In this document: one piece after another, positions 5,201 to 27,966 of the stretch | How positions within the stretch are numbered: the stretch's first letter is position 1 | Layout: each line of letters starts with the position of its first letter | Assembly: GCA_027460615.1 (NCBI GenBank) | Contig: JAPZAO010000205.1 | Location: 1 to 34,454, forward strand | Direction of reading: 5' to 3' | DNA: 34,454 bases | From: Candidatus Methanoperedens sp. | GTDB lineage: Archaea; Halobacteriota; Methanosarcinia; Methanosarcinales; Methanoperedenaceae | Made by a program: the position numbers and the translations under genes | Notes under the pieces: model-generated | The model's database searches: none | What the model was told of the DNA's origin: nothing | What the model saw: only the letters and a program-made list of their open reading frames with translations

Positions 5201-6585
5201 CGCAAAAGAAAGAATATGACGTGATAATCGTAGGCGCGGGACCTGCCGGCATGTTCGCTGCAGATGAACTTGCAGGAAAAATGAATGTGCTTATCATTGA
5301 TATGGGACGCGACATAGATGAGCGCGAATGCAAGATGAAGCGCCGCGGCGTCTGTACACATTGCGACCCGTGTGATATCATGTGCGGCGTGGGAGGCGCA
5401 GGGACGTATTCGGACGGGACGCTCAACCTTCGCCCCGATATAGGCGGAGACCTTGCAGAGCAGACCGGCGACCCTGAATATGCCTGGGAACTGGTTGACC
5501 ATGTGGACAAGGTATTCGTGAGATACGGCGCGCCGGAGCAGTTATACATTCCCAAAGGCGACGAAGTCGAGCAGTTAAAACGCCGTGCCGCTGCTGTGGG
5601 AGCAAGGTTCATCGAGATAATCCAGAGGCACATGGGGTCTGACAATGCGCCAAGGGTTATTGGTAATTTTGAAAAGGATTTGAAGGAAAGGGGCATTGAA
5701 TTCCTGCTTGATACGAAGGTATCAGACCTGATTATCGAAAATGATACATGCAGCGGTGTGGTATTGCAGGACGGGACGGAGTTACACTCCAGGTTCACGA
5801 TAATAGCGCCCGGAAGGGTCGGGGCGAAATGGATAGATGAGATTATCCAGAAACACAAAATCGGGGCGAAATACGCACCCATTGACGTTGGTGTCAGGGT
5901 GGAAGTCCCGGCAATCGTGATGGACCCGATAACGAAGATTAACCGTGACCCGAAATTCCATATCCAGACCAAGACCTATGATGATTTTGTCAGGACATTC
6001 TGCACGAACGAGCATGGTTTTGTGGTCAAGGAAGAGTATGAGGATTTCATAGCTACTAACGGGCATTCCATGACAAATATGGAATCTGAGAACACGAATT
6101 TTGCTTTTATTGTCAGGGTGGAGCTTACCGAACCCATTGAGAATACCGTGCGCTACGGGCGGTCGATTGCGAAGCTTGCAACCACAATCGGCGGGGGAAA
6201 GCCTGTGCTTCAGAGGATGGGTGATCTGCGGCGCGGCAGGCGCAGTACCGAAGCGAGGCTCAGGAAGAATGTTGTGGTTAATACCCTTAAGGACGTGACG
6301 CCGGGCGATATTTCCATGGCTCTCCCGCACCGCATTGTCACTGATATAAGGGAAGGGCTTGAGGTTTTAAATGAAATAATTCCCGGGGTGGCATCCGATT
6401 CCACGCTTTTGTATGCGCCCGAGGTGAAATTCTATTCCATGCAGGTTCTTGTGGACAGGAACATGGAATCCTCGGTTAAGAACCTGTTCGCAGCCGGGGA
6501 CGGCGCCGGCCTTTCGAGGGATATTGTGAATGCTGCGGCGACAGGAGTGATTGCGGGCAGGGGGATATTGAAGAAGGCGGGGTGA
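5197..6585 (+). CDS. FAD-dependent dehydrogenase (COG2509-like)
   Basis: The 462-residue protein begins with a Rossmann dinucleotide motif IIVGAGPAGMF (GxGxxG at 13-18). It ends with the FAD-binding motif NLFAAGDGAGLSRDIVNAAATG, as in large uncharacterised FAD dehydrogenases. A Cys-rich patch near the N-terminus (Cys45, 53, 56, 59 and 63, in RRGVCTHCDPCDIMCGVGG) could bind a cluster or act in thiol redox chemistry. The middle region includes RRGRRSTEARLRKN and DVTPGDISMALPHRI. The substrate is unknown. It is coupled to purP by an ATGA overlap and ends only 9 nt before the methyltransferase of the defence operon. Family assignment is good; the reaction is not known. Confidence 0.85.
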   Translation: MTQKKEYDVIIVGAGPAGMFAADELAGKMNVLIIDMGRDIDERECKMKRRGVCTHCDPCDIMCGVGGAGTYSDGTLNLRPDIGGDLAEQTGDPEYAWELVDHVDKVFVRYGAPEQLYIPKGDEVEQLKRRAAAVGARFIEIIQRHMGSDNAPRVIGNFEKDLKERGIEFLLDTKVSDLIIENDTCSGVVLQDGTELHSRFTIIAPGRVGAKWIDEIIQKHKIGAKYAPIDVGVRVEVPAIVMDPITKINRDPKFHIQTKTYDDFVRTFCTNEHGFVVKEEYEDFIATNGHSMTNMESENTNFAFIVRVELTEPIENTVRYGRSIAKLATTIGGGKPVLQRMGDLRRGRRSTEARLRKNVVVNTLKDVTPGDISMALPHRIVTDIREGLEVLNEIIPGVASDSTLLYAPEVKFYSMQVLVDRNMESSVKNLFAAGDGAGLSRDIVNAAATGVIAGRGILKKAG

Positions 6586-6594
6586 TACAGCGAA

Positions 6595-7869
6595 ATGGTA
6601 ACTGAAAATGGAATTACAGTTCTGGATATGTTTGCCGGAGCCGGAGGCTTATCTGAGGGATTTTTCAGAAATGGTTTCAATTTCATAGCACATATCGAAA
6701 AGGATACATACGCTTCAAAAACTCTGGAAACACGTGCTCTTTATCACGCGCTGAAAAATAATGATATGCTGGACATATATTATGAATATTTGAAGGGAAA
6801 TATTACCAGAGATATGCTTTTTGAAGAAACTAAGGAAATCTCAAAAAATATTTCTTCAGGAGTATTTAATGTTGAGATTTCTGAAAAGACAGAAAAATCA
6901 CTGATTAATGGAATTTGGGAAAGGATGAAAAAAGATCATGTTCAAAAAGTGGATATCATGATTGGTGGACCTCCCTGTCAGGCATATTCGATCATGGGTA
7001 GATCGAGAGACCCCAATGGAATGAAAGAAGACCCACGAAATTACCTATATCACCATTATATATCCTTTTTGAAGACATTCAAACCTGATTTTTTTATATT
7101 CGAAAATGTTCCTGGAATTCTTACTGCAAAGAAAGGGGATATATTCCATGATATGATAAGACAAATTTGCAGTATGGGATATGTGATGGAACCTGAACCA
7201 GAAATACTGGATGCATCCGATTTTTTTGTGCTTCAGAAAAGAAAACGTGTTATTTTAATGGGCTGGCATTCTGAGAATGGATTCAAATATCCAAGGTTTA
7301 CAAAAAAAGAACATAGTTTTAATATCAGTAATTTGCTTGGAGATCTGCCAGCACTGCAACCGGGTGGAGGTTGTGAGGAAGCGCAGCATTATCTAAAACA
7401 ACCCACCAGATATCTCAGAGAATCAGGAATAAGAGATAAAAGGGATGTTCTAATTCAACATAATGCCAGAAAACATAATGAAAGAGACCGGGAAATTTAT
7501 AGACGCGCAATAATAGCATGGGAGAATGGTGAAAAGAGGCTCAAGTATCCAGACTTGCCTGAACACTTAAAAACACATAAAAACCAGAAATCATTTGAGG
7601 ATAGATTTAAAGTTGTAGCTGGAGATCTCCCCTATGCTCATACGGTTGTGGCGCATATTTCGAAGGACGGTCACTATTATATTCATCCCGATATTAATCA
7701 GGCAAGATCCCTTACAGTTAGAGAAGTTGCTCGAATTCAATCCTTTCCAGACAATTACAAATTTGAAGGACCGAGAACATCCCGGTATGTCCAGATAGGA
7801 AATGCAGTACCTCCTCTTATGGCAGAGGCAATTGGCATGGAAATAAGAAAGATGTTCGAAGGGATTTAA
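6595..7869 (+). CDS. DNA (cytosine-5-)-methyltransferase
   Basis: The 424-residue protein has the C5-methyltransferase motifs in order. Motif I is VLDMFAGAGGLSEGF (10-23), binding AdoMet; motif IV is GGPPCQAYS with nucleophile Cys128; motif VI is ENV (170-172); motif VIII is QKRKR (214-218); a target-recognition region spans about 230-370; motif X is GNAVPP (402-407). An insert of roughly 60 extra residues lies between motifs I and IV. It would methylate cytosine at a specific site and mark self DNA. GGTGAT precedes the ATG, and the stop overlaps the next start as TAATG. First gene of the defence operon, A+T-richer than the purP pair before it, suggesting acquisition. The target sequence cannot be read. 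Confidence 0.95.
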   Translation: MVTENGITVLDMFAGAGGLSEGFFRNGFNFIAHIEKDTYASKTLETRALYHALKNNDMLDIYYEYLKGNITRDMLFEETKEISKNISSGVFNVEISEKTEKSLINGIWERMKKDHVQKVDIMIGGPPCQAYSIMGRSRDPNGMKEDPRNYLYHHYISFLKTFKPDFFIFENVPGILTAKKGDIFHDMIRQICSMGYVMEPEPEILDASDFFVLQKRKRVILMGWHSENGFKYPRFTKKEHSFNISNLLGDLPALQPGGGCEEAQHYLKQPTRYLRESGIRDKRDVLIQHNARKHNERDREIYRRAIIAWENGEKRLKYPDLPEHLKTHKNQKSFEDRFKVVAGDLPYAHTVVAHISKDGHYYIHPDINQARSLTVREVARIQSFPDNYKFEGPRTSRYVQIGNAVPPLMAEAIGMEIRKMFEGI

Positions 7870-8555
7870 TGAAATCTCTTTTATGTGATCTGGATGAAAA
7901 AACCTACAGAAATACTGTGGTGGAAATCAGGAATGGAATCTTGGAATGGGGTAATAAGAACCTCAGAGATTTTCCATGGAGAAATACAAATGATCCTTAT
8001 AAAATAATTATCGCTGAAATCATGCTTCATAGAACGAATGCAGACCAAGTGAAACCAGTTTATGAAAAATTCATTGAAGAGTTTCCAGATTTTTCATCAA
8101 TTGTCAGGGCTGGTTCTAAAAATATCAGGACTGAAATACAACCCCTCGGTCTTTTCTGGCGATCTGATCTTTTATATCTGCTGGCAGAAGAGGTGGTGGA
8201 AAAATATAACGGTACTCTCCCTCTTGAAAAAAAGAAACTTATGGAGTTTCCTGGTGTTGGGCATTACATAGCATCTGCAATACTTTGTTTTGGATATAAT
8301 CGGCCGGAACCTCTTCTTGATACAAATACTGTCAGGGTGATTGGCCGTATTTTTGGAATAAAAATTACCGATTCATCAAGAAGAAGTAAAAAATTTTATA
8401 CAATTATGCAGGATATTGTTGCCTGTGAGGAACCAAAGAGACTGTCATTATCTATGATTGATTTTGCGGCTCTCGTATGCACAGCTAAAGATCCAAAACA
8501 TGATTTGTGCTCGATCAATAATATTTGTTGTTTTTATAGAACAAAAGTGACTTGA
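7869..8555 (+). CDS. HhH-GPD DNA glycosylase, MIG-like T:G mismatch glycosylase
   Basis: The 228-residue protein belongs to the EndoIII/MutY superfamily: FPWRNTNDPYKIIIAEIMLHRT (35-56), helix-hairpin-helix FPGVGHYIASAIL (127-139) and catalytic Asp151 in LLDTNTVRV. At the EndoIII lyase-Lys position it has Tyr133, as in the MIG thymine-DNA glycosylase paired with a cytosine methyltransferase on a Methanothermobacter plasmid. That predicts a monofunctional glycosylase removing T from T:G mismatches made by 5-methylcytosine deamination. The C-terminal cluster motif reads C204-x6-H211-x2-C214-x5-C220, so the second Cys ligand of the usual 4Fe-4S site is His. Overlaps the methyltransferase stop by one base (TAATG). 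MutY-like A:G activity is less likely; an attack on modified phage bases cannot be excluded. Confidence 0.88.
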   Translation: MKSLLCDLDEKTYRNTVVEIRNGILEWGNKNLRDFPWRNTNDPYKIIIAEIMLHRTNADQVKPVYEKFIEEFPDFSSIVRAGSKNIRTEIQPLGLFWRSDLLYLLAEEVVEKYNGTLPLEKKKLMEFPGVGHYIASAILCFGYNRPEPLLDTNTVRVIGRIFGIKITDSSRRSKKFYTIMQDIVACEEPKRLSLSMIDFAALVCTAKDPKHDLCSINNICCFYRTKVT

Positions 8556-8564
8556 TTGATTTGT

Positions 8565-10064
8565 ATGACAAAAACAGATTCTTACGATTTTGACATCGCT
8601 GCACCAGATGCAGGAGCAATGATAGAATCACTGCGCGCTTTTGGATACGACCTACCGACCTCAATTTCCGACCTTATCGATAACAGCATATATGCGGGGG
8701 CAAAAAATGTCTGGCTGAAATTTTATTGGAATGGGGAAAATTCGACCTTCTCCCTAAAAGATGACGGCTGCGGAATGAACGAAGATGAGTTAATAAATGC
8801 CATGCGACTAGGTAGTAGGAATCCTCTTGAGGAGAGGGATCCGGAGGATCTCGGCAGATTTGGTCTTGGTCTGAAAACCGCTTCTTTTTCCCAATGCAGG
8901 AGACTTACAGTGGCTACAAAATCAGCAGGACAGAACATTGCCATACGTTGCTGGGATATAGATCAGGTTGTCAAAACGGGAGAATGGCGTCTATTGAAAA
9001 TCACCGGAAAAAATGCAGATAGTTATTTTTCAGATTTGGAAAAGATGGAAAATGGTACCGTTGTTTTGTGGGAAAATATTGATCGAATTGTCAGTGGCAC
9101 AAGAGTTGACAATGGAAAAGATCACAGGTTATTCCTCGAACGCATTGATAGTGTTAAGTATCATCTTGCGATGGTTTTCCACAGATTTCTGGAACGGGGC
9201 AGACTCAAAATATGGATTAATGAAAGGACGTTAGAGCCATGGGATCCTTTTCTAAAGAATAAAAAGGCAACTCAGTTACTCAATGAGGAAAGCCTTGATA
9301 TTACCAAGAAGATCGTTGTGAATCCATATGTCCTTCCACATCATTCAAAAATAGATGATGAAACTCATAACTATGCTGCTGGGCCGAAAGGCTGGAATGC
9401 TCAGCAGGGTTTCTATGTCTACAGGAAAGAAAGATTAATAGTTGCAGGAAGCTGGCTTGGACTGGGGTTTAAAAAAGAGGAGCACTACAAACTTGCGCGT
9501 ATTCAAATAGACATACCCAATTCGATGGATATTCAATGGGAAATCGATGTGAGGAAATCAATTGCTCGTCCACCAGCGTTTCTTCGGGATGATTTAAAGC
9601 GTATTGCAAGATTAACAAGGGAAAAGGCGGCAGAGATATACCGCCACAGAGGAAAAATAATAGCCAGAGCCAGTGCTTCAAATTTTGTTTTCGTGTGGGA
9701 AAAAAAAGTCAGGCATGGGAAGATATTCTACTCACTAAACAGGCAGCATCCATTGATCAAAGAAGTACTGGATAATCCTGATGAATATAATCCAACAATA
9801 CGAGCACTGATACGACTGATTGAAGAAACCGTTCCAAGTCCCATGATTGCAATGGATAATTCAGAAAATCCAGACAAACAGATCAAACCTTTTGAGAAAC
9901 TGCCATCGAATGAACTTGTCGATGTCATGACAGAAGTTTATAAGTCACTTCTGGCTTCAGGTTTGACTGTCCAAGATGCCCAGAACAGACTTGCTGTGAT
10001 GGAGCCGTTTTATCATTATCCAGAGCTTGTTGTAAGTTTTTTTGAATCAAAACAGGAGATCTAA
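8565..10064 (+). CDS. MORC-like GHKL ATPase of a restriction-modification operon
   Basis: The 499-residue protein starts with a Bergerat-fold ATPase: N-box SDLIDNSIYAGAKNV (35-49), DDGCGM (66-71) and LGRFGLGLKTASF (96-108). A transducer-like middle follows (ENGTVVLWENIDRI, then IQIDIPNSMDIQWEIDVRKS). Prokaryotic MORC/MutL-like ATPases of this type are known next to Z1, PD-(D/E)XK and AIPR genes and are thought to clamp or load onto DNA when bound to ATP. Two deviations: Asp36 where MutL has the catalytic Glu, and Tyr43 where many members have Asp (SIDA). I choose ATG 8565 rather than the TTG at 8556. The start is 9 nt after the glycosylase stop without a strong ribosome site, implying coupling. 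Confidence 0.9.
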   Translation: MTKTDSYDFDIAAPDAGAMIESLRAFGYDLPTSISDLIDNSIYAGAKNVWLKFYWNGENSTFSLKDDGCGMNEDELINAMRLGSRNPLEERDPEDLGRFGLGLKTASFSQCRRLTVATKSAGQNIAIRCWDIDQVVKTGEWRLLKITGKNADSYFSDLEKMENGTVVLWENIDRIVSGTRVDNGKDHRLFLERIDSVKYHLAMVFHRFLERGRLKIWINERTLEPWDPFLKNKKATQLLNEESLDITKKIVVNPYVLPHHSKIDDETHNYAAGPKGWNAQQGFYVYRKERLIVAGSWLGLGFKKEEHYKLARIQIDIPNSMDIQWEIDVRKSIARPPAFLRDDLKRIARLTREKAAEIYRHRGKIIARASASNFVFVWEKKVRHGKIFYSLNRQHPLIKEVLDNPDEYNPTIRALIRLIEETVPSPMIAMDNSENPDKQIKPFEKLPSNELVDVMTEVYKSLLASGLTVQDAQNRLAVMEPFYHYPELVVSFFESKQEI

Positions 10065-10065
10065 T

Positions 10066-12804
10066 ATGATAGATTATGATAAAGCAAGACAGCTTGTAAT
10101 GGTCATGCTGAAAGGTGAACAAAAAATTAACAGTGAAATAATTCATGAAAAAATTAATAAAATTCGTGATATGGTATCTGGAGAAAATCAACATAGTATA
10201 GATTGGGAAACCCTTGTCAGAGATATAGAAAGCAGGTGTAATGTCTGGATTGGAAAGGGCACCTTTTTGGAATATCAGGTGGATCATAAACCATGGCTTC
10301 CAGATCGCAGGAGTCAGATACAGTGGAAGTTCTGGAAACGTTACGAGCGATATCTTGAAGAGGAAAAAGGATGGAGTGATAAAACCGTCACAAAGCTTGG
10401 AGAATTCACCGATCAGATTCTTGAAAGATTGGAAGATCCCCAAAGAGTGGGAAAATGGGATCGAAAAGGTATGGTGGTTGGACAAGTTCAATCCGGAAAG
10501 ACAGCAAATTATACCGGTCTTATATGCAAAGCTGTTGATGCCGGTTATAAACTCATAATTGTTCTGGCTGGACAGCACAAAAGTTTGAGGAGTCAAACCC
10601 AACTAAGGCTTGATGAAGAATTTCTGGGTTTTGATACACAATTGAACAGGGCGTTCAATCAGGAGAACCTTCGTATGGGAGTTGGACGCCTCACAGGAGA
10701 AGAGTTTCTCACAGTTCACTCGCTGACCAGTAATGCTGATAACGGTGATTTCAATAAAAAAGTTGCAATTCAGGTTGGCGTGGTTCCGGGAGGTGGAGAT
10801 CCTGTCCTTCTTGTTGTCAAGAAGAACAAATCGGTTCTATCAAACCTTCTGAACTGGGCAGTAAGTGTGCGAGGAGAGAAGGACACCGACACTGGAAAGA
10901 AAATTGTGAGGCGCTTGCCTTTTCTGGTTATTGATGATGAAGCAGATAACGCCTCTATCAATACAAATCCAATCCCATTGGATGAAACTGGAAAAATACT
11001 GGAAGATTATGATGTTACAGCCATCAATGGAATGATCAGACAACTGCTGGATAGTTTTGAAAAAACTGCTTATGTCGGTTATACCGCAACTCCTTTTGCC
11101 AATATTTTTATTTTTCCTCAGGGAGAAACAGACCGATATGGAAAGGATCTGTTTCCGGAGAGTTTTATTATCAATCTCCCTGCTCCATCGAACTATATAG
11201 GGCCCGCAAAGGTATTTGGTATTGATAGGGACGAAGACGCCGGAATCGAATCTGAAGAAGGGTTGCCGATCATAAGAATTGTGGATGACTTTGAAACATT
11301 CATCCCGAATAATCACAAAAAAGAACACATTCCTACAGGAGTTCCTGATTCACTTAAAAAAGCCATGAGATCTTTTATTATATCATGCGCAGCCCGAATG
11401 GCGAGAGGATATGATAAAAACCACAATTCCATGCTTGTGCATGTTACAAGATTTACTGATGTACAGAAAAAAGTGGCGGAGCTTGTCAATGATGAACTTA
11501 CTTTCCTCAAACGACGACTTGAATATGGAGATGGAAATTCATCGGAACCATTGCTGGCTGAACTTGAATCTTTATGGCGAGAGGATTATTTTGAAACAAC
11601 TCGAAAACTAAAAGAACGAATTCAAGATCCTATGATGAAAGACATTGACTGGAATGAAGTGAAACAGAATCTATACAGAGCAGCAGACAAGATTCAACTG
11701 AAGATTATAAATGGAACAGCAAAAGATATTCTGGATTACAGGGATCACACAAATGGATTAAACGTAATCGTTATTGGTGGAGATAAGTTATCACGGGGAT
11801 TGACTCTGGAAGGACTGACAGTAAGCTATTATTTGAGAGCTTCCCGCATGTACGATACCCTCATGCAAATGGGACGTTGGTTCGGTTATCGTCCGGGTTA
11901 CATTGACCTTTGCCGATTGTATACATCGGAAGAACTTGTAACATGGTACAGATATATTACTCTGGCCAGTGAAGAGCTAAGAAATGATTTTGATGATATG
12001 GCTGCGCTGAATTGTACGCCAAAGGATTACGGGCTTAGAGTGCGAACGCATCCTGAAGGACTTATTATTACAGCTGTAAATAAAATGAGAACAGGCACAG
12101 AAATGGAACTGTCTTATGCAGGAACAATCGCAGAAACTGTAATATTTCATAAGGACAATAAAATAAATAATTTAAACTTAAATGTATTTGATACATTTAT
12201 CCGTGAAAGAGGTCCTTACGAGATAAAAAATGGGAATTTTATTTGGAAAGAAGTATCAGCTCAGACTATTACACAATTACTACATGAGGTCATAATTCAC
12301 CCTGAATCGCGAAAGGCAAATCCGGAGATACTCAGACAGTATATTGAAGCTCAGTTGGAAAATAATGAATTAAAGCGGTGGACGGTTGCTCTTATCTCAA
12401 CACAAAAAGGGGCACGTTGGCCATTTCGCGCCGATCTTGAGGTGGGACTTCCTCAACGTGCTGATGCAAGTGCGATGAGTGATAAATATTCGATGGCAAA
12501 GTCTCGCCTAATAGATCCTGAAGATGAGTATATTGATTTAAGCGACGACGAATTAGAGACGGCAAAACAGATGGCAGGGGACACCTATAAACGTGGACGT
12601 CTTGGAGGGAAGTATATCAGAAACTCAAGACCCCCTGATAGGGGACTTCTCCTTATTTATCCATTGGATCCAAAACCTGCCGGTGTCGATAAACCAGTGA
12701 TGGGGTTAGCCTTTAGTTTTCCAGGGAGTTACACTGCAAAGAAGATAAAATATAAAGTAAACAATATCTACTGGAAACAGGAGTTTGGCAATGACGATTC
12801 TTGA
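10066..12804 (+). CDS. Z1-domain ATPase (helicase-like)
   Basis: The 912-residue protein is a clear Z1-family member. About 130 N-terminal residues precede Walker A GQVQSGKTANY (139-149). Then come Walker B LVIDDEADNAS (DDEAD at 290-294), GYTATPFAN (338-346), GGDKLSRGLTLEGL (from about 571) and MQMGRWFGYR (around 599), equivalent to SF2 motifs III, V and VI. Z1 proteins are superfamily-2-like ATPases found with MORC ATPases in restriction-modification operons; DNA translocation or remodelling is inferred. The start is ATG 10066 with AGGAG 8 nt upstream; an earlier in-frame codon at 10042 lies inside the preceding gene. Its 3' end overlaps the nuclease gene by 14 nt. Confidence 0.95.
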   Translation: MIDYDKARQLVMVMLKGEQKINSEIIHEKINKIRDMVSGENQHSIDWETLVRDIESRCNVWIGKGTFLEYQVDHKPWLPDRRSQIQWKFWKRYERYLEEEKGWSDKTVTKLGEFTDQILERLEDPQRVGKWDRKGMVVGQVQSGKTANYTGLICKAVDAGYKLIIVLAGQHKSLRSQTQLRLDEEFLGFDTQLNRAFNQENLRMGVGRLTGEEFLTVHSLTSNADNGDFNKKVAIQVGVVPGGGDPVLLVVKKNKSVLSNLLNWAVSVRGEKDTDTGKKIVRRLPFLVIDDEADNASINTNPIPLDETGKILEDYDVTAINGMIRQLLDSFEKTAYVGYTATPFANIFIFPQGETDRYGKDLFPESFIINLPAPSNYIGPAKVFGIDRDEDAGIESEEGLPIIRIVDDFETFIPNNHKKEHIPTGVPDSLKKAMRSFIISCAARMARGYDKNHNSMLVHVTRFTDVQKKVAELVNDELTFLKRRLEYGDGNSSEPLLAELESLWREDYFETTRKLKERIQDPMMKDIDWNEVKQNLYRAADKIQLKIINGTAKDILDYRDHTNGLNVIVIGGDKLSRGLTLEGLTVSYYLRASRMYDTLMQMGRWFGYRPGYIDLCRLYTSEELVTWYRYITLASEELRNDFDDMAALNCTPKDYGLRVRTHPEGLIITAVNKMRTGTEMELSYAGTIAETVIFHKDNKINNLNLNVFDTFIRERGPYEIKNGNFIWKEVSAQTITQLLHEVIIHPESRKANPEILRQYIEAQLENNELKRWTVALISTQKGARWPFRADLEVGLPQRADASAMSDKYSMAKSRLIDPEDEYIDLSDDELETAKQMAGDTYKRGRLGGKYIRNSRPPDRGLLLIYPLDPKPAGVDKPVMGLAFSFPGSYTAKKIKYKVNNIYWKQEFGNDDS

Positions 12805-13813
12805 AGATGTATGGAAGTCACTGGAGGATGATTCTAAATATGAAACAGGAATCTGCATCTTAAAACGCAGGTTAGAACCTTCATCTTCATGTGATGTTTT
12901 TCTCGGTTATGAGAAACCAGTAAATAGACGTATGCTGCTACTCAGGATCTCGTGTTCAAACACTCCTGAAACTGAAGCTCTACCACGTTCGAAAGGTTTT
13001 GAGGTCATGGCTGTTTCGCTGCCTGAAGACGATGAAGATCATGCTACTCTGGAATTGATATTGACCGATTCCAGATTTACTGATATTTTTACTAATCTTG
13101 TACAGGATGTAGTAGATAATATTACTGCACAGAAAAATGAAATGTTAATGATAAAGGCTTTCATCGAAAGATTGGTAAAATGGCAGCAATTTCTTGATCG
13201 ATATAGTCATGAGGGTCTCGGTGATGAAGCTCAAAGAGGACTGTATGGAGAACTCTGGTTTCTGCGAAAATATTTGATACCAATCCTTAGAATAAATAAA
13301 GCCCTTGATGCCTGGAAAGGGCCAGCCAGAAAAGCACAGGATTTCCAGTTCTCAGATTGTGCAGTGGAGGTTAAAACAACCATCAGCAAACAGCACCAGA
13401 AAATGTATATAGCAAATGAACAGCAGCTTGATGATACAGGTCTTGCATCCCTCTTTCTTCAACATATATCACTCATGGAAAGCAGTGGTGGCGGTGAAAC
13501 ACTGGTTGATATAGTGGAAGATATCAGAAAAACTATTGCCGACGAACCAGCAGCCAGCCAGAAAATGGAAGATTCTCTGTTTGAGGCAGGTTATCTGAAT
13601 GCTCAGGCACATCGTTACAATAAGACAGGCTATAATGTAAGATCTTCCAATATTTTCAGAATAAGTGAAGGATTTCCCAGAATCACTGAAGGTGATCTAT
13701 TAAATGGCGTTGGTGATGTGCATTATTCAGTAAATGTATCTGAATGCATGCATTATGTTATAAACGAATGTGATTTTGAATCTTTTTTAGTGGAGACAAT
13801 GAATGGATATTGA
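12791..13813 (+). CDS. PD-(D/E)XK motif nuclease (DUF4420-like)
   Basis: The 340-residue protein has the PD-(D/E)XK motif-protein signature. Glu154 lies in RGLYGELWFL, followed by Asp184 in KAQDFQF and Glu193-Val-Lys195 in AVEVKTT, matching the E...D...ExK layout of restriction-endonuclease-like folds. It is the probable DNA-cleaving subunit, cutting unmethylated invading DNA with help from the MORC and Z1 ATPases; this is inferred from family and context. The start is ATG 12791 (a TTG at 12785 is in frame). The gene overlaps Z1 by 14 nt upstream and AIPR by 11 nt downstream, so stoichiometry is likely set by coupling. All expected catalytic residues are present. Confidence 0.9.
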   Translation: MTILEDVWKSLEDDSKYETGICILKRRLEPSSSCDVFLGYEKPVNRRMLLLRISCSNTPETEALPRSKGFEVMAVSLPEDDEDHATLELILTDSRFTDIFTNLVQDVVDNITAQKNEMLMIKAFIERLVKWQQFLDRYSHEGLGDEAQRGLYGELWFLRKYLIPILRINKALDAWKGPARKAQDFQFSDCAVEVKTTISKQHQKMYIANEQQLDDTGLASLFLQHISLMESSGGGETLVDIVEDIRKTIADEPAASQKMEDSLFEAGYLNAQAHRYNKTGYNVRSSNIFRISEGFPRITEGDLLNGVGDVHYSVNVSECMHYVINECDFESFLVETMNGY

Positions 13814-15845
13814 TACTGAATTTGATGAGTTTGCAAAAAAATTTCAGCAGGATGTTATCAGCCAATGTCAGGTAGAAGATGATGAATCTTTCAAGGAAGA
13901 CCAGTTTACAGAAATTATGATGGAATACCTGAAAGACGCAGATGAGATTGACACTAAATTTGTTTGCTATCACAATGCGCGCGGCATAAAAGTAAATGGT
14001 TACAATGTGAGTGGGAATAAAGAGTGTTTGGATCTTTTTGTTTCCATTTATTATGGAGAAGTTCCTCCGCCAAGAGTTGCCAAAAGTGATGTAGATACTG
14101 CATTCAAAAGAGTATACAATTTCCTTATGAAAGCTTTTGGAGATTATCATCTTTATCTAGAAGAGGCGTCACCTGTTTTTGATCTTGCAGACACAATTCA
14201 TGAACTGAAGGATACTCTCATAAATATCAGATTATTTCTTCTGACAGATGGAATTGTAAAAGTAGAATCCATAGATGATATAAAGGAGAACAATTTAAGC
14301 ATATCCCATCACGTATGGGATATTCAGAGACTTTTCAGATTATGCAGTTCAGGCAAAAAAAGAGAAGCGATAGAAGTTGATTTTGAAAATGAATTTGGAG
14401 GCAGCATACCCTGTTTGTCCCTGACTGAACCGAATCCTGATTATGTAACATACCTTGCCATCATTCCAGGAAAAACGCTTGTTAAATTGTATGGAGATTA
14501 CGGCCCTAGATTGCTGGAAAGAAATGTCAGATCTTTTTTGCAGGTCAGAGGAAATGTTAATAAGGGAATCAGAAATACCATAATTCAAGAACCTCATATG
14601 TTTCTTGCCTACAATAATGGACTTTCAGCAACAGCGGAAAAAGTTGAAATTATTCCATCAAATGGAGGATACGGAATAAAATGGGCGAAAGACTTTCAGA
14701 TTGTCAATGGAGGTCAGACTACTGCATCAATTTATCATGCCTACAGAAAGGATAAAGCGGATGTCTCGAATATATATGTTCAGGTTAAATTGACCGTTCT
14801 GAAAGATGCGAGCAGGATAGATAGCTTTGTTCCGAAAATATCTCTGTATGCCAACAGCCAGAATAAGGTAAGTGTAGCTGATTTTTCAGCAAACAATCCG
14901 TTTCATATCAAGTTAGAAGAGTTATCAAGAACAGTATGGGCACCTGCGCCGCCGGGTATACAGCTTCAGACCCGATGGTACTATGAACGTGCAAGGGGAC
15001 AGTATCTTGATGAAAAAGGGGGAGAGAGAACGATTGCACGCAAAAATGCCTTCGAAATCTCAAATCCGAAAATACAGAAATTTACAAAAACTGATCTGGC
15101 GAAGTTTGAAAACACCTGGAATCAGCTTCCATATATAGTAAGCAGAGGAGCAGAGAAAAACTTTATGGAATTTATGGTTATCCTTAAGGAAAGAGGAGAG
15201 TTTCAGCCTGACAGAACATATTATGAGCATCTAATCGCAAAAGCTATACTTTTCAGACATGCAGAAAAACTTGTTCAAAAACAACAATACGGTGGTTATC
15301 GAGCCAATATTGTTACTTATACTCTTGCTCTGATTTCCCATAAAACAGCACAGCGAATTGACCTTGACAGAATATGGAAAGAACAGTCTATCTCCCCTAT
15401 TCTTATGGACACTATCATCAGTGTATCTGAAGTGGTTCACAGGCATATTGCAAATCCTCCCGGTGGCAGAAACATAACAGAATGGTGTAAAAAGGAGCAA
15501 TGCTGGGAAGATCTCCTTTCGCTTGATATAAAAATGCCCGATGAACTGGAAAATGAACTCATTGGGACAGATGGAAGAGAAAGAGCCGGAGTTGACAAGG
15601 GAATAGACAGTCCTGACAGTGAGGATCATGAGAAAATACTGGAGGTCATGAAGGTGCAAGTAGAGACATGGTTTAAAATTGCCCACTGGGCAAAGGAAAC
15701 AGGAAATCTCAAACCATGGCAGAGAAGCCTCTCTTTTTCAATGGGAAATCTGGCAAAAAGAGGAAGAGAACCAAGCAGAAAGCAGGCCGCTCAGGCACTT
15801 ATAATACTGGAGGATGCCCGCCGCCTGGGCTTTGAAATCCACTAA
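13803..15845 (+). CDS. AIPR (abortive infection phage resistance) family protein
   Basis: The 680-residue protein carries the AIPR core: MFLAYNNGLSATAEKVEI (around 264-281) and FQIVNGGQTTASIYHAY (around 297-313). A C-terminal region with GGYRANIVTYTLALISH follows. AIPR proteins are found in abortive-infection and restriction loci; their biochemical action is not settled, though a nuclease role has been suggested for the family. Near the N-terminus NKECLDLFVSIYYGE might be a nuclease-like strand, but I cannot confirm a full active site. It is the last gene of the defence operon and overlaps the PD-(D/E)XK gene by 11 nt. After its stop comes a short A+T-rich gap with no clear terminator. Confidence 0.92.
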   Translation: MDIDTEFDEFAKKFQQDVISQCQVEDDESFKEDQFTEIMMEYLKDADEIDTKFVCYHNARGIKVNGYNVSGNKECLDLFVSIYYGEVPPPRVAKSDVDTAFKRVYNFLMKAFGDYHLYLEEASPVFDLADTIHELKDTLINIRLFLLTDGIVKVESIDDIKENNLSISHHVWDIQRLFRLCSSGKKREAIEVDFENEFGGSIPCLSLTEPNPDYVTYLAIIPGKTLVKLYGDYGPRLLERNVRSFLQVRGNVNKGIRNTIIQEPHMFLAYNNGLSATAEKVEIIPSNGGYGIKWAKDFQIVNGGQTTASIYHAYRKDKADVSNIYVQVKLTVLKDASRIDSFVPKISLYANSQNKVSVADFSANNPFHIKLEELSRTVWAPAPPGIQLQTRWYYERARGQYLDEKGGERTIARKNAFEISNPKIQKFTKTDLAKFENTWNQLPYIVSRGAEKNFMEFMVILKERGEFQPDRTYYEHLIAKAILFRHAEKLVQKQQYGGYRANIVTYTLALISHKTAQRIDLDRIWKEQSISPILMDTIISVSEVVHRHIANPPGGRNITEWCKKEQCWEDLLSLDIKMPDELENELIGTDGRERAGVDKGIDSPDSEDHEKILEVMKVQVETWFKIAHWAKETGNLKPWQRSLSFSMGNLAKRGREPSRKQAAQALIILEDARRLGFEIH

Positions 15846-15878: not shown

Positions 15879-16298
15879 ATGCTTTCACAAGATATTGAAA
15901 AGAAAATAATATCCGAACTTAAAGGCAAATTTCATTACGACCTTCGCTGCGTAATCTTATTCGGCTCATACGCAAAAGCCACCGCCCAACCATATTCTGA
16001 CATTGATATCCTTATAATCCTGAGCAGAAAATTCGCAAACTGGACGGAACGGCGCGACCTTGAAATCGAACTCAGAAAAAGGCTTTATCGAACAGTAGGG
16101 CAGGTTTCTCCAAAGGTCGGCTCTGTTGAAGAACTGGAAGCAGCATTAAAAGCCCATAATCCGCTGATACTTAATATCCTCGATTCCGGCATCACATTAT
16201 ACGATGACGGCGCCTTCGCTAAGCTGAAGGAGCAATTTAAACAGATTGTTTCAACCGAGGTTCAGAAGCGCGCCGATTGTTGGGAGATGGTAGCATGA
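15879..16298 (+). CDS. MNT-type nucleotidyltransferase-domain protein
   Basis: The 139-residue protein has the minimal nucleotidyltransferase motif CVILFGSYAKATAQPYSDIDILI, with the GS and DxD metal-binding residues intact. In HEPN-MNT toxin-antitoxin modules this domain neutralises a HEPN RNase by nucleotidylating it. Here no HEPN gene follows: the stop at 16298 is succeeded by repeat-rich non-coding DNA, and none precedes it. It may therefore be an orphan, act with a partner elsewhere, or have another role. Its position 33 bp after the AIPR gene could make it the tail of the defence locus, but base composition and the separate A+T-rich leader suggest an independent unit. Confidence 0.85.
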   Translation: MLSQDIEKKIISELKGKFHYDLRCVILFGSYAKATAQPYSDIDILIILSRKFANWTERRDLEIELRKRLYRTVGQVSPKVGSVEELEAALKAHNPLILNILDSGITLYDDGAFAKLKEQFKQIVSTEVQKRADCWEMVA

Positions 16299-16385
16299 TT
16301 CAGATGGTTTTTGAAATTTTAGTGCCGCAAAGGATAATATCGGTAATCTTTGCTTTCTGGCATGGAAAAATACTAACAACGCAAC

Positions 16386-16474
16386 ATAGAACACGGATGA
16401 CACGGATTAGACGGATTTTCACAGATAATTTTAATCCGTGCACATCCGTGTCATCTGTGCAATCCGTGTTCTAT
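16386..16474. repeat. Inverted-repeat element built of ACACGGAT units
   Basis: ATAGAACACGGAT (16386-16398) is repeated in perfect inverted form at 16462-16474, and GACACGGAT (16399-16407) in perfect inverted form at 16444-16452. Further ACGGAT/ATCCGT units lie between, so several alternative foldings are possible. It is non-coding and sits between the MNT and CitG-like genes. A related element with the same GAACACGGAT ends lies at 30135-30250. Similar ACACGGAT repeats are, from memory, scattered in many microbial genomes without known function. Confidence 0.75.
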
Positions 16475-16496
16475 CACAATAAAGCATCAATCGGGT

Positions 16497-16523
16497 ATCT
16501 GCGTTTATCTGCGTTCATCTGCG
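16497..16523. repeat. Three ATCTGCG repeats with exact 10-bp period
   Basis: ATCTGCG occurs at 16497, 16507 and 16517, separated by 3-nt spacers (TTT, TTC), ending 6 bp before the CitG-like start codon. The helical-turn spacing could allow protein binding to one DNA face, or it may be part of the adjacent repeat family. No function is known to me. Confidence 0.6.
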
Positions 16524-16529
16524 GTTAAT

Positions 16530-17402
16530 ATGACACATACAGACCCTTCCCACATCGCCCGCTGCGCCCAGCTTGCCATGATTCTTGAGGTCTCAGCCAC
16601 ACCCAAGCCGGGCAACATCGACAGAGACCACAACTACACGGACACGCGCTTTGAGCACTTCCTGGCAAGCGCCGTGGGCGTGTATCCAATCCTGGAAAAA
16701 GCTGCGCGCTCAAATTCCGGCGTTGGCGCCCTCATCCATGAAGCTGTCGCAGAGAGCGGCAAATGGCAGAAAGGCGGCAACACGCATTTCGGGGCTTTTC
16801 TCCTGCTCATCCCGCTTGCGATGGCAGCAGGGAAATGTGAAAATAAAACCTGCCTGAAAGCGCAGGTTCAGAGGGTTGTAAGAGAAACAAGCGTGGAGGA
16901 TGCAATCGAATTCTACAGGGCGTTTTCCGATGCGAAAGTGAAAGTTAAACCTGTGGATGACCTTGACCTTGGCGATGCGTCATCCGTTGACAAACTAAAA
17001 TCGGAGGGATTGGCCCTCTATAATCTCATGGAAATTTCCTGTGGATATGATATGATAGCAGAGGAATGGACAAACGGTTTTAAAAGAACTTTTGAGTGCG
17101 CCGCTTCAATTCAGGGCAAAATCAAAAAACACGGCATCAATGATGCCGTTGTCCTCACATTTATGGAACTCCTTTCCACCAATAAAGACACCTTCATCCA
17201 GACAAAATTCGATAGCAAAAAAGCAGAGGAGGTTTCTTTGCGTGCAAAAAAGATACTGCAAAAAGGGAATATGGACGAAATAAGGGACAAAATACGTTCT
17301 TTTGATGAGGAATTGTTAAACGAAGGCGTGAACCCGGGCTCGACCGCTGATATAATCATCGCGGGGCTGTTCGTATCACTGTTTGAGGGGATGAGATTCT
17401 GA
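16530..17402 (+). CDS. CitG-like triphosphoribosyl-dephospho-CoA synthase family protein
   Basis: The 290-residue protein has the family signature ILEVSATPKPGNIDR (18-32), then GGNTHFGAFLLLIPLAMA, DLDLGDASS and a C-terminal GVNPGSTADIIIAGLFV. In bacteria CitG/MdcB makes the prosthetic-group precursor of citrate lyase or malonate decarboxylase from dephospho-CoA and ATP. No such lyase is present here. Archaeal homologues are uncharacterised and probably transfer a triphosphoribosyl-like group in another cofactor pathway. The stop shares its last base with an apparent ATA start of the DUF447 gene (TGATA), indicating coupled translation. From memory these two families often lie together and near methanopterin genes; I cannot verify that here. 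Confidence 0.85.
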   Translation: MTHTDPSHIARCAQLAMILEVSATPKPGNIDRDHNYTDTRFEHFLASAVGVYPILEKAARSNSGVGALIHEAVAESGKWQKGGNTHFGAFLLLIPLAMAAGKCENKTCLKAQVQRVVRETSVEDAIEFYRAFSDAKVKVKPVDDLDLGDASSVDKLKSEGLALYNLMEISCGYDMIAEEWTNGFKRTFECAASIQGKIKKHGINDAVVLTFMELLSTNKDTFIQTKFDSKKAEEVSLRAKKILQKGNMDEIRDKIRSFDEELLNEGVNPGSTADIIIAGLFVSLFEGMRF

Positions 17403-26922: not shown

Positions 26923-27966
26923 GTGAAACCTACAACGGAAAAGCATTCAACTAAGTGTTTTATTATCATGCCCATTACCACTCCAGAGAGTTGGGTTGAA
27001 AAATACTTGGGGGACGAAGACCATTTTAATCATGTTTTAGACTATTTATTAATACCTGCTATTGAAAAAGCTGGCTTTGAACCTATCTCACCAATAACGA
27101 AAGGCGCGGAACTTATTCAAGGTGAAATTATTAAGAATATCGAATCCGCAGATTTTGTTTTATGTGACATGTCTATTCTCAATCCGAATGTTTTTTTTGA
27201 ATTGGGTATAAGAACATCATTAAATAAGCCTGTATGTATAATTAGAGATGATTTAACAGAAAATGTCCCATTTGACGTAAAAATGATAAATAATCACGAA
27301 TATTCGAGTGCTTTATATGCTTGGGAACTGGATGCCCAAATTGAAGCTTTAGCCACGCATATTAAAGATAGTTTTGCAAAATGCAAAGGTTCTAATTCTT
27401 TGTGGAAATATTTTGGTTTGAGTTCGTCAGCTCAACCTTTTAAAGAAGAAGGGGCCGATGCAAAAATTGATTTTTTAATAAGACAAGTTGAAGTACTTAG
27501 GGAAAAATTAAATCCATCAGATTTTTCTTCAAAAAAGATATATTCAGCGGGTATTTCTTCTGATGACAAATTAAGGCGAAGCTATTCAGAATTAATAGTA
27601 TCTTTTGAAGATTTGGTTTCCCAATGCTTAAATGAATTGAAGATTACCAAAAAAGCCCAAACTTTGCAATCAGATAATTGTGATTTTTTAGTTATTAATC
27701 CAAAAAATGGGAAAAACATACCAATAGAGGTAAAATTTTATCTAAAAAGAGTTGTTGCGAATGAATTGCCTTCTCAATTAATAAAGAAGATGAAAAATTG
27801 TATGAATCAAGTGGGAAGTGATGAATCCATAGTAATTATTTCATCGAAGGTTACTCCAGAAGCTTTAGAACTATTTAAAGCGTTGGCGGGGAAAGATAAA
27901 ATACATATAGTCACAGGGAACACTAAAGAGGAATTAAAATCTCAACTAACCAATATTTTTACTTAA
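26923..27966 (+). CDS. Deoxyribosyltransferase/TIR-like domain fused to a restriction-endonuclease-like domain
   Basis: The 347-residue protein has two parts. The N-terminal region (about 11-150) has CFIIMPI, LIPAIEKAGFEPISP, GEIIKNIESADFVLCDMS and NPNVFFELGIRTSLNKPVCI. This is the pattern of nucleoside 2-deoxyribosyltransferase-like/TIR-like domains, with Glu93 as likely catalytic residue. The C-terminal region (about 185-347) has a coiled stretch and then Asp254 (NCDFLVINP) and Glu269-Val-Lys271 (IPIEVKFY), a plausible PD-(D/E)XK core. The start is GTG 26923 with AGGTGA upstream. An N-terminal nucleotide- or NAD-processing domain joined to a nuclease suggests a self-contained anti-phage or stress effector. 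It stands alone, is A+T-rich, and is bracketed by short direct repeats. Function inferred. Confidence 0.7.
   Translation: MKPTTEKHSTKCFIIMPITTPESWVEKYLGDEDHFNHVLDYLLIPAIEKAGFEPISPITKGAELIQGEIIKNIESADFVLCDMSILNPNVFFELGIRTSLNKPVCIIRDDLTENVPFDVKMINNHEYSSALYAWELDAQIEALATHIKDSFAKCKGSNSLWKYFGLSSSAQPFKEEGADAKIDFLIRQVEVLREKLNPSDFSSKKIYSAGISSDDKLRRSYSELIVSFEDLVSQCLNELKITKKAQTLQSDNCDFLVINPKNGKNIPIEVKFYLKRVVANELPSQLIKKMKNCMNQVGSDESIVIISSKVTPEALELFKALAGKDKIHIVTGNTKEELKSQLTNIFT

What the first reader, a model, noticed from the sequence alone, without database searches (positions are those of the whole stretch)
6595..15845. MORC/Z1 restriction operon in which a MIG-like glycosylase takes the place of Vsr
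Six same-strand genes with overlaps or tiny gaps encode a C5-cytosine methyltransferase, HhH-GPD glycosylase, MORC-like ATPase, Z1 ATPase, PD-(D/E)XK nuclease and AIPR protein (seen directly). MORC/Z1/AIPR restriction operons are known from comparative genomics, usually, as I recall, with a Vsr endonuclease by the methyltransferase. Here a T:G-type glycosylase fills that slot, as in the M.MthTI/MIG plasmid pair. This suggests an archaeal version in which mismatch repair of deaminated 5mC is done by base excision. A more speculative reading is that the glycosylase attacks modified phage bases.
Basis: partly seen in the sequence, partly recalled or inferred. Interest (0 to 1): 0.75.

Follow-up and report, generated by a model that had tools for sequence, protein, structure and literature searches.

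The report
Defence operon with built-in mismatch glycosylase
This archaeal anti-virus operon marks its own DNA with methyl groups and carries a base-removing repair enzyme to undo the mutations that such marks cause, where most related operons carry an unrelated repair nuclease (Vsr) for the same job.

Summary
The six genes at 6595-15845 are real and form an MZA-type operon: C5-methyltransferase (MTase), HhH-GPD glycosylase, MzaB (MORC ATPase), MzaC (Z1), MzaD (DUF4420 nuclease), MzaE (AIPR). The glycosylase is MIG-like. Its best solved relative is MIG (1KEA) by sequence and by predicted fold. It keeps MIG's Glu, Ala, Tyr, Asp and Leu pocket residues and groups apart from chromosomal MutY-like proteins. 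Of 92 distinct MZA loci, 54 carry Vsr, 11 a MIG-like glycosylase, 27 neither (16 on short flanks) and none both. Archaea split 10 glycosylase to 5 Vsr; bacteria 1 to 49. The two swap at least five times on the MzaC tree, even beside MTases whose target-recognition regions are 75% identical. The same MTase-glycosylase pair also sits inside DISARM (five archaeal loci). The window's pair is closer to one of those than to other MZA pairs. Best reading: a portable mark-and-repair cassette in which base excision replaces Vsr for T:G mismatches at methylated sites. It is not strictly archaeal. T:G activity, target motif and phage defence are untested. New variant of a known kind; the precedent is M.MthTI with MIG.

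The parts
6595..7869 (+). C5-cytosine DNA methyltransferase, DrmMII-like (self mark)
   Evidence: Pfam DNA_methylase 7e-61; PADLOC DrmMII 612 bits; PCQ, ENV, QxRxR and GNAV motifs present; nearest MTase is in a DISARM locus, L069, 63% identity
7869..8555 (+). MIG-like HhH-GPD mismatch glycosylase (V slot); E50, A58, Y133, D151, L194, D198 match MIG E42, A50, Y126, D144, L187, D191; cluster loop C204, H211, C214, C220
   Evidence: best PDB hit 1kea, 1.9e-42; AlphaFold2 pLDDT 95 with top fold match 1kea; pocket residues; trees
8556..10064 (+). MzaB, MORC-like GHKL ATPase (start probably ATG 8565)
   Evidence: PADLOC MzaB 4e-128; NCBIfam MzaB 507 bits, below its 850 cut-off
10042..12804 (+). MzaC, Z1-domain SF2-type ATPase (start probably ATG 10066)
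   Evidence: Pfam Z1 1e-87; PADLOC MzaC 749 bits; QSGKT, IDDEAD and YTATPFAN motifs invariant in 12 homologues
12785..13813 (+). MzaD, DUF4420 PD-(D/E)XK nuclease (EVK motif; start probably ATG 12791)
   Evidence: Pfam DUF4420 4e-88; PADLOC MzaD
13803..15845 (+). MzaE, AIPR-family protein
   Evidence: Pfam AIPR 1e-107; PADLOC MzaE 356 bits

Best explanation
The operon is a methylation-marked MZA defence system. Inferred steps: the MTase marks host sites with 5-methylcytosine; MzaB, MzaC, MzaD and MzaE attack DNA lacking the mark. Spontaneous deamination of 5mC at marked sites gives T:G mismatches. The MIG-like glycosylase removes that T (or U) and leaves an AP site, which host base-excision enzymes (AP endonuclease, polymerase, ligase) restore to C:G, so the marks are not lost to C-to-T mutation. 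In most relatives Vsr, an unrelated nicking nuclease, does this job. Shown here: gene content, MIG-type pocket and fold, recurrent linkage to C5-MTases, one-or-the-other pattern with Vsr, repeated swaps, and exchange of the MTase-glycosylase pair between MZA and DISARM. Not shown: enzyme activity, methylated motif, defence.
For: MIG (1KEA) is the best structural relative by sequence and by predicted fold. Glu42, Tyr126 and Asp144 of MIG are kept in nearly all linked glycosylases, with Ala at position 50 in most; the MutY-like controls differ at several of these. A50 and L187 are the positions reported to decide T/G against A/G preference in MIG (PMC2714593). A C5-MTase lies in the locus of 48 of 51 MIG-like genes against 0 of 20 controls. 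V-slot tally over 92 MZA loci: Vsr 54, glycosylase 11, neither 27, both 0; all 65 loci with intact flanks hold a C5-MTase. Zero overlap among those 65 (9 glycosylase, 45 Vsr) has hypergeometric p about 5e-6, and archaea alone (6 and 5 of 11) 0.002; neither figure corrects for kinship. At least 5 glycosylase/Vsr changes on the MzaC tree and 7 on the MTase tree. Vsr-linked L029 and glycosylase-linked L027 and L090 have MTase recognition regions 75% identical. Pfam confirms the archaeal Vsr calls. Five DISARM loci carry MTase-glycosylase-DrmA-DrmB. One clade of MZA glycosylases is rejected (p-AU 5e-54).
Against: No activity data. Tyr126 is also found in some MutY enzymes (PMC2714593), and position 187 varies (Leu, Phe, Tyr), so substrate is not settled by sequence. 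Complete bacterial loci with neither repair gene exist (11 of 65), so the function is dispensable or supplied elsewhere. One cluster Cys is His (H211), though relatives share this. The bacterial sample is the best 80 of at least 584 hits to an archaeal-weighted query, so proportions are not unbiased.
Confidence: 0.85

Rival explanations
1. The glycosylase is a restriction effector: it excises modified bases from phage DNA, and the AP sites lead to breakage or feed the MZA nuclease.
For: It lies inside a defence operon. Base-excision restriction enzymes exist as a principle, in the unrelated PabI fold (PMC10273834).
Against: It never co-occurs with Vsr, which has no such role, in 92 MZA loci. 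It follows C5-MTases into MZA, DISARM and simple R-M loci. The pocket is that of a mismatch enzyme and there is no extra targeting domain.
Confidence: 0.05
2. It is a MutY/EndoIII paralogue that happened to lie next to the MTase, with a housekeeping oxidative-damage role.
For: NCBIfam's best model is mutY at 156 bits, far under its 286 cut-off. The fold is shared with MutY.
Against: Tree separation from chromosomal MutY-like proteins (98/98), different pocket residues, recurrent MTase linkage against 0 of 20 controls, and other HhH-GPD genes already in the genome.
Confidence: 0.05
3. It repairs T:G and U:G generally, and its place in the operon only reflects horizontal co-transfer rather than service to this MTase.
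For: MIG is reported active on U/G and T/G without a stated sequence requirement (PMC2714593), so it could act genome-wide.
Against: The slot is filled by one of two unrelated T:G enzymes in all 11 intact archaeal loci sampled by genome, and a second C5-MTase in the same genome has its own Vsr.
Confidence: 0.05

Closest known systems
M.MthTI and MIG of Methanothermobacter plasmid pFV1
   Same: C5-MTase and MIG T:G glycosylase in one R-M locus; same fold and pocket
   Different: There the pair serves a simple type II system (NgoPII-like nuclease). The window glycosylase is about 33% identical and sits in a six-gene MZA operon.
MTase-containing MZA-like 'Type II' system (PMC9523054) and the MORC/Z1/AIPR operons of Iyer et al. 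2008 (PMC2292703)
   Same: C5-MTase, MORC, Z1, PD-(D/E)XK and AIPR genes; Vsr reported in such neighbourhoods
   Different: Neither text names a glycosylase; here it fills the Vsr slot
MzaABCDE
   Same: Homologues of MzaB, MzaC, MzaD and MzaE in the same order
   Different: No MzaA sigma factor; MTase and glycosylase present; all four below the NCBIfam equivalog cut-offs
DISARM with DrmMII
   Same: DrmMII-like MTase next to a MIG-like glycosylase in five archaeal loci; the window's pair is nearest to one of them
   Different: Effector genes are DrmA and DrmB rather than MzaB-E
Dcm and Vsr of E. coli
   Same: C5-MTase with a dedicated T:G repair enzyme
   Different: Vsr is a nicking PD-(D/E)XK nuclease, unrelated to the glycosylase

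Membership tests
MIG-type T:G mismatch glycosylase | MIG as closest characterised relative by sequence and fold | tested here: met
   1kea ranks first in phmmer (1.9e-42) and in Foldseek (7.5e-14)
MIG-type T:G mismatch glycosylase | Pocket residues Glu42, Ala50, Tyr126, Asp144, Leu187 | tested here: met
   E50, A58, Y133, D151, L194 in the window protein
MIG-type T:G mismatch glycosylase | Four-Cys [4Fe-4S] loop C-x6-C-x2-C-x5-C | tested here: not met
   Second Cys is His211; the same change occurs in 10 related glycosylases, so probably tolerated. I therefore call the protein MIG-like, not MIG
MIG-type T:G mismatch glycosylase | Excises T and U opposite G | not testable with these tools
   Needs purified enzyme
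MIG-type T:G mismatch glycosylase | Encoded beside a C5-MTase | tested here: met
   Overlaps the MTase gene by 1 base; 48 of 51 relatives have a C5-MTase in the locus
MZA system (MzaABCDE) | MzaB, MzaC, MzaD and MzaE homologues in order | tested here: met
   PADLOC 4e-128, 1e-225, 1e-28, 8e-107
MZA system (MzaABCDE) | Full-score members (NCBIfam equivalog cut-offs) | tested here: not met
   507/850, 853/1500, 178/420, 456/1050 bits: related, not equivalogs
MZA system (MzaABCDE) | MzaA sigma factor | tested here: not met
   Upstream neighbour is an FAD oxidoreductase; no sigma-like gene in the operon. That MzaA is a sigma factor is from PMC9523054
MTase-containing MZA-like system (PMC9523054 Type II) | Z1, DUF4420 nuclease, C5-MTase, AIPR and MORC genes together | tested here: met
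MTase-containing MZA-like system (PMC9523054 Type II) | Protects against phage | not testable with these tools
   Needs phage or virus challenge
DISARM | DrmA and DrmB genes | tested here: not met
   None in the operon; no DrmA match in the genome at E <= 1e-100. Only the MTase is DrmMII-like

The most novel reading that the evidence does not exclude
The MTase plus T:G-repair pair is a self-contained, portable mark-and-maintain module that plugs into different effector systems (MZA, DISARM, other MORC/R-M loci) and comes with two interchangeable repair chemistries. The strong form, to which the probability refers and which nothing here supports: the glycosylase also acts during infection, so that AP sites help the MZA nuclease recognise foreign DNA.
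Probability: 0.08. Interest if true: 0.8.

Novelty: new variant of a known kind. Interest (0 to 1): 0.52.

Why it matters
It turns a one-off plasmid observation (M.MthTI with MIG) into a recurring rule: defence systems that mark DNA with 5mC often carry one dedicated T:G repair enzyme, which can be a nicking nuclease or a glycosylase. The swap beside closely similar MTases is a natural experiment on what 5mC marking costs the host. It also gives a test of whether a repair gene is part of a defence system's fitness. Finders built for MZA or DISARM that look only for Vsr would miss this component, and annotation pipelines call it MutY.

Tried and rejected
Viral contig search with the glycosylase: no relatives. 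One mafft run timed out and was replaced by faster settings. No RNA family or tRNA in the window. Phage records with MzaC homologues are short unannotated faecal contigs and were not pursued. Target-motif prediction from solved MTases failed: the nearest, M.HaeIII and Dnmt1, are too distant. CCWGG is reported for a DISARM system (PMC11676413) but is not transferable here without a test. Considered and rejected: housekeeping MutY, chance neighbour, phage-base effector (see rivals).
Full report
OBSERVATION. The six genes exist as described. Pfam and PADLOC identify a C5-MTase, an HhH-GPD protein, and homologues of MzaB (MORC-like GHKL ATPase), MzaC (Z1), MzaD (DUF4420, PD-(D/E)XK) and MzaE (AIPR). 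NCBIfam names the same four Mza families, but all score under the equivalog cut-offs. So this is a relative of MzaABCDE, not a textbook copy. There is no MzaA (described as a sigma factor in PMC9523054). The closest described system is the MTase-containing 'Type II' arrangement of PMC9523054, and before that the MORC operons of Iyer et al. 2008, who noted MTases and Vsr nucleases nearby.

SETTING. The contig belongs to an archaeal genome assembly (82% complete, 5% contamination). The flanks hold archaeal and methanogen-type genes and match a same-genus genome, G337, at 78-82% DNA identity in the same order. In G337 the slot between the FAD oxidoreductase and the nucleotidyltransferase holds other small genes and an 87-base duplicate of the FAD gene's end. 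That fits an insertion hotspot and horizontal gain of the operon, as does its lower GC.

THE GLYCOSYLASE. The best PDB match by sequence is MIG, 1KEA (1.9e-42), ahead of MutY. An AlphaFold2 model (pLDDT 95) also matches 1KEA first, then MutY. On the sequence alignment it has MIG's Glu42, Ala50, Tyr126, Asp144, Leu187 and Asp191. PMC2714593 reports that A50 and L187 set T/G against A/G preference in MIG and that Y126 is needed. Chromosomal MutY-like proteins from related genomes have different residues at several of these places, and they form a separate group with 98/98 support. One cluster cysteine is histidine (H211); ten relatives share this.

LINKAGE CONTROL. Among 51 distinct MIG-like genes, 48 have a C5-MTase in the locus, mostly within 500 bases. 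Among 20 MutY-like controls from genomes of the same phylum, none does. Four of the 51 were reached through MzaC rather than through the glycosylase. Examples include pFV1 itself, halophile plasmids, and Caldicellulosiruptor and Thermus plasmids.

GLYCOSYLASE VERSUS VSR. Z1 occurs in 13 of 393 genomes of the phylum. With 80 further loci from genome contigs, less one duplicate, there are 92 distinct MZA loci. The repair slot holds Vsr in 54, the glycosylase in 11, neither in 27 (16 of these with a contig end near the operon), and both in none. All 65 loci with at least 2.5 kb on both sides have a C5-MTase. In archaea the split is 10 glycosylase, 5 Vsr and one truncated locus. In bacteria it is 1 glycosylase (a Chloroflexota assembly), 49 Vsr and 26 neither. 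Pfam confirms the five archaeal Vsr genes. The hypergeometric chance of no overlap is 5e-6 for the 65 intact loci and 0.002 for the 11 intact archaeal ones of the phylum search. These figures ignore kinship, so the tree counts matter more: at least five glycosylase/Vsr changes on the MzaC tree and seven on the MTase tree. The sharpest case is L029, which has Vsr, against L027 and L090, which have the glycosylase. Their MTases are 71-73% identical overall and 75% in the recognition region, so probably the same methylated site is served by two unrelated repair enzymes. The bacterial sample is the best 80 of at least 584 hits, so ratios there are rough.

NOT ONLY MZA. The window's MTase and glycosylase are both nearest to a pair in a DISARM locus (L069: MTase, glycosylase, DrmA, DrmB; 63% and 65% identity). 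Five of ten archaeal DrmA-bearing genomes have the glycosylase directly before DrmA, one has Vsr by its MTase, and the rest lack either or are cut or diverged. The MZA glycosylases do not form one clade (p-AU 5e-54), so the enzyme joined MZA at least twice, and the pair has moved between MZA and DISARM.

ONE GENOME, TWO SOLUTIONS. The host genome has a second C5-MTase with its own Vsr next to it on another contig (contamination of the assembly is a caveat). This speaks against the idea that archaea use the glycosylase because Vsr cannot work there, and suggests each MTase keeps its own repair partner. AP-endonuclease-family genes are present for the downstream steps.

MECHANISM. Inferred: the MTase marks self; MzaB-E restrict unmarked DNA; deaminated 5mC (T:G) at the marks is excised by the glycosylase and restored by base excision repair. 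Shown: gene content, pocket, fold, linkage, exclusivity and swaps. Not shown: any activity, the motif, phage defence. The effector rival (attack on modified phage bases) is not excluded but nothing favours it.

NOVELTY. MIG beside an MTase is known; MZA-like operons with MTase and Vsr are known. What I did not find in the papers searched is the glycosylase in the V slot of MZA and DISARM, the one-or-the-other pattern, and the repeated swaps. The paper library is open-access only, and PADLOC's match of the protein to a 'type II nicking endonuclease' model suggests that REBASE already catalogues such proteins as V enzymes (inference).

Noticed in passing
G000:C110:2294-3998 (L220, L226): The same genome has another C5-MTase with an adjacent Vsr, so one cell appears to use both T:G repair solutions, one per MTase (assembly contamination 5%).
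   Followed up: partly
window 15879-16530; L212:4215-5068: An MntA-like nucleotidyltransferase lies after the operon. In the sister genome it is followed by a 145-aa ORF (HepT-like by position); in the window that partner is missing and about 230 bases of short repeats stand in its place.
   Followed up: partly
window 6499-6585; L212:3356-3441: An 87-base copy of the end of the upstream FAD oxidoreductase gene lies further downstream in G337, hinting at an insertion hotspot right after that gene.
   Followed up: partly
window 8478-8528 (residues 204-220 of the glycosylase): The iron-sulphur loop reads C-x6-H-x2-C-x5-C; the Cys-to-His change recurs in ten related glycosylases, with Gly or Ser in a few others.
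   Followed up: partly
L170-L189 (MutY-like controls): Most of these chromosomal MutY-like proteins have Glu at the catalytic Asp position and no iron-sulphur cysteines in the alignment, an unusual active site worth its own look.
   Followed up: no
window 26923-27966: A 347-aa protein with an Mrr-type nuclease domain and a weak nucleoside deoxyribosyltransferase match, in the AT-rich stretch around 27 kb; possibly another defence gene.
   Followed up: no
L078:2644-14186: A type I R-M-like locus (specificity subunit, HsdR-like) holding a DrmMII-like C5-MTase, a GHKL protein and a MIG-like glycosylase together.
   Followed up: partly
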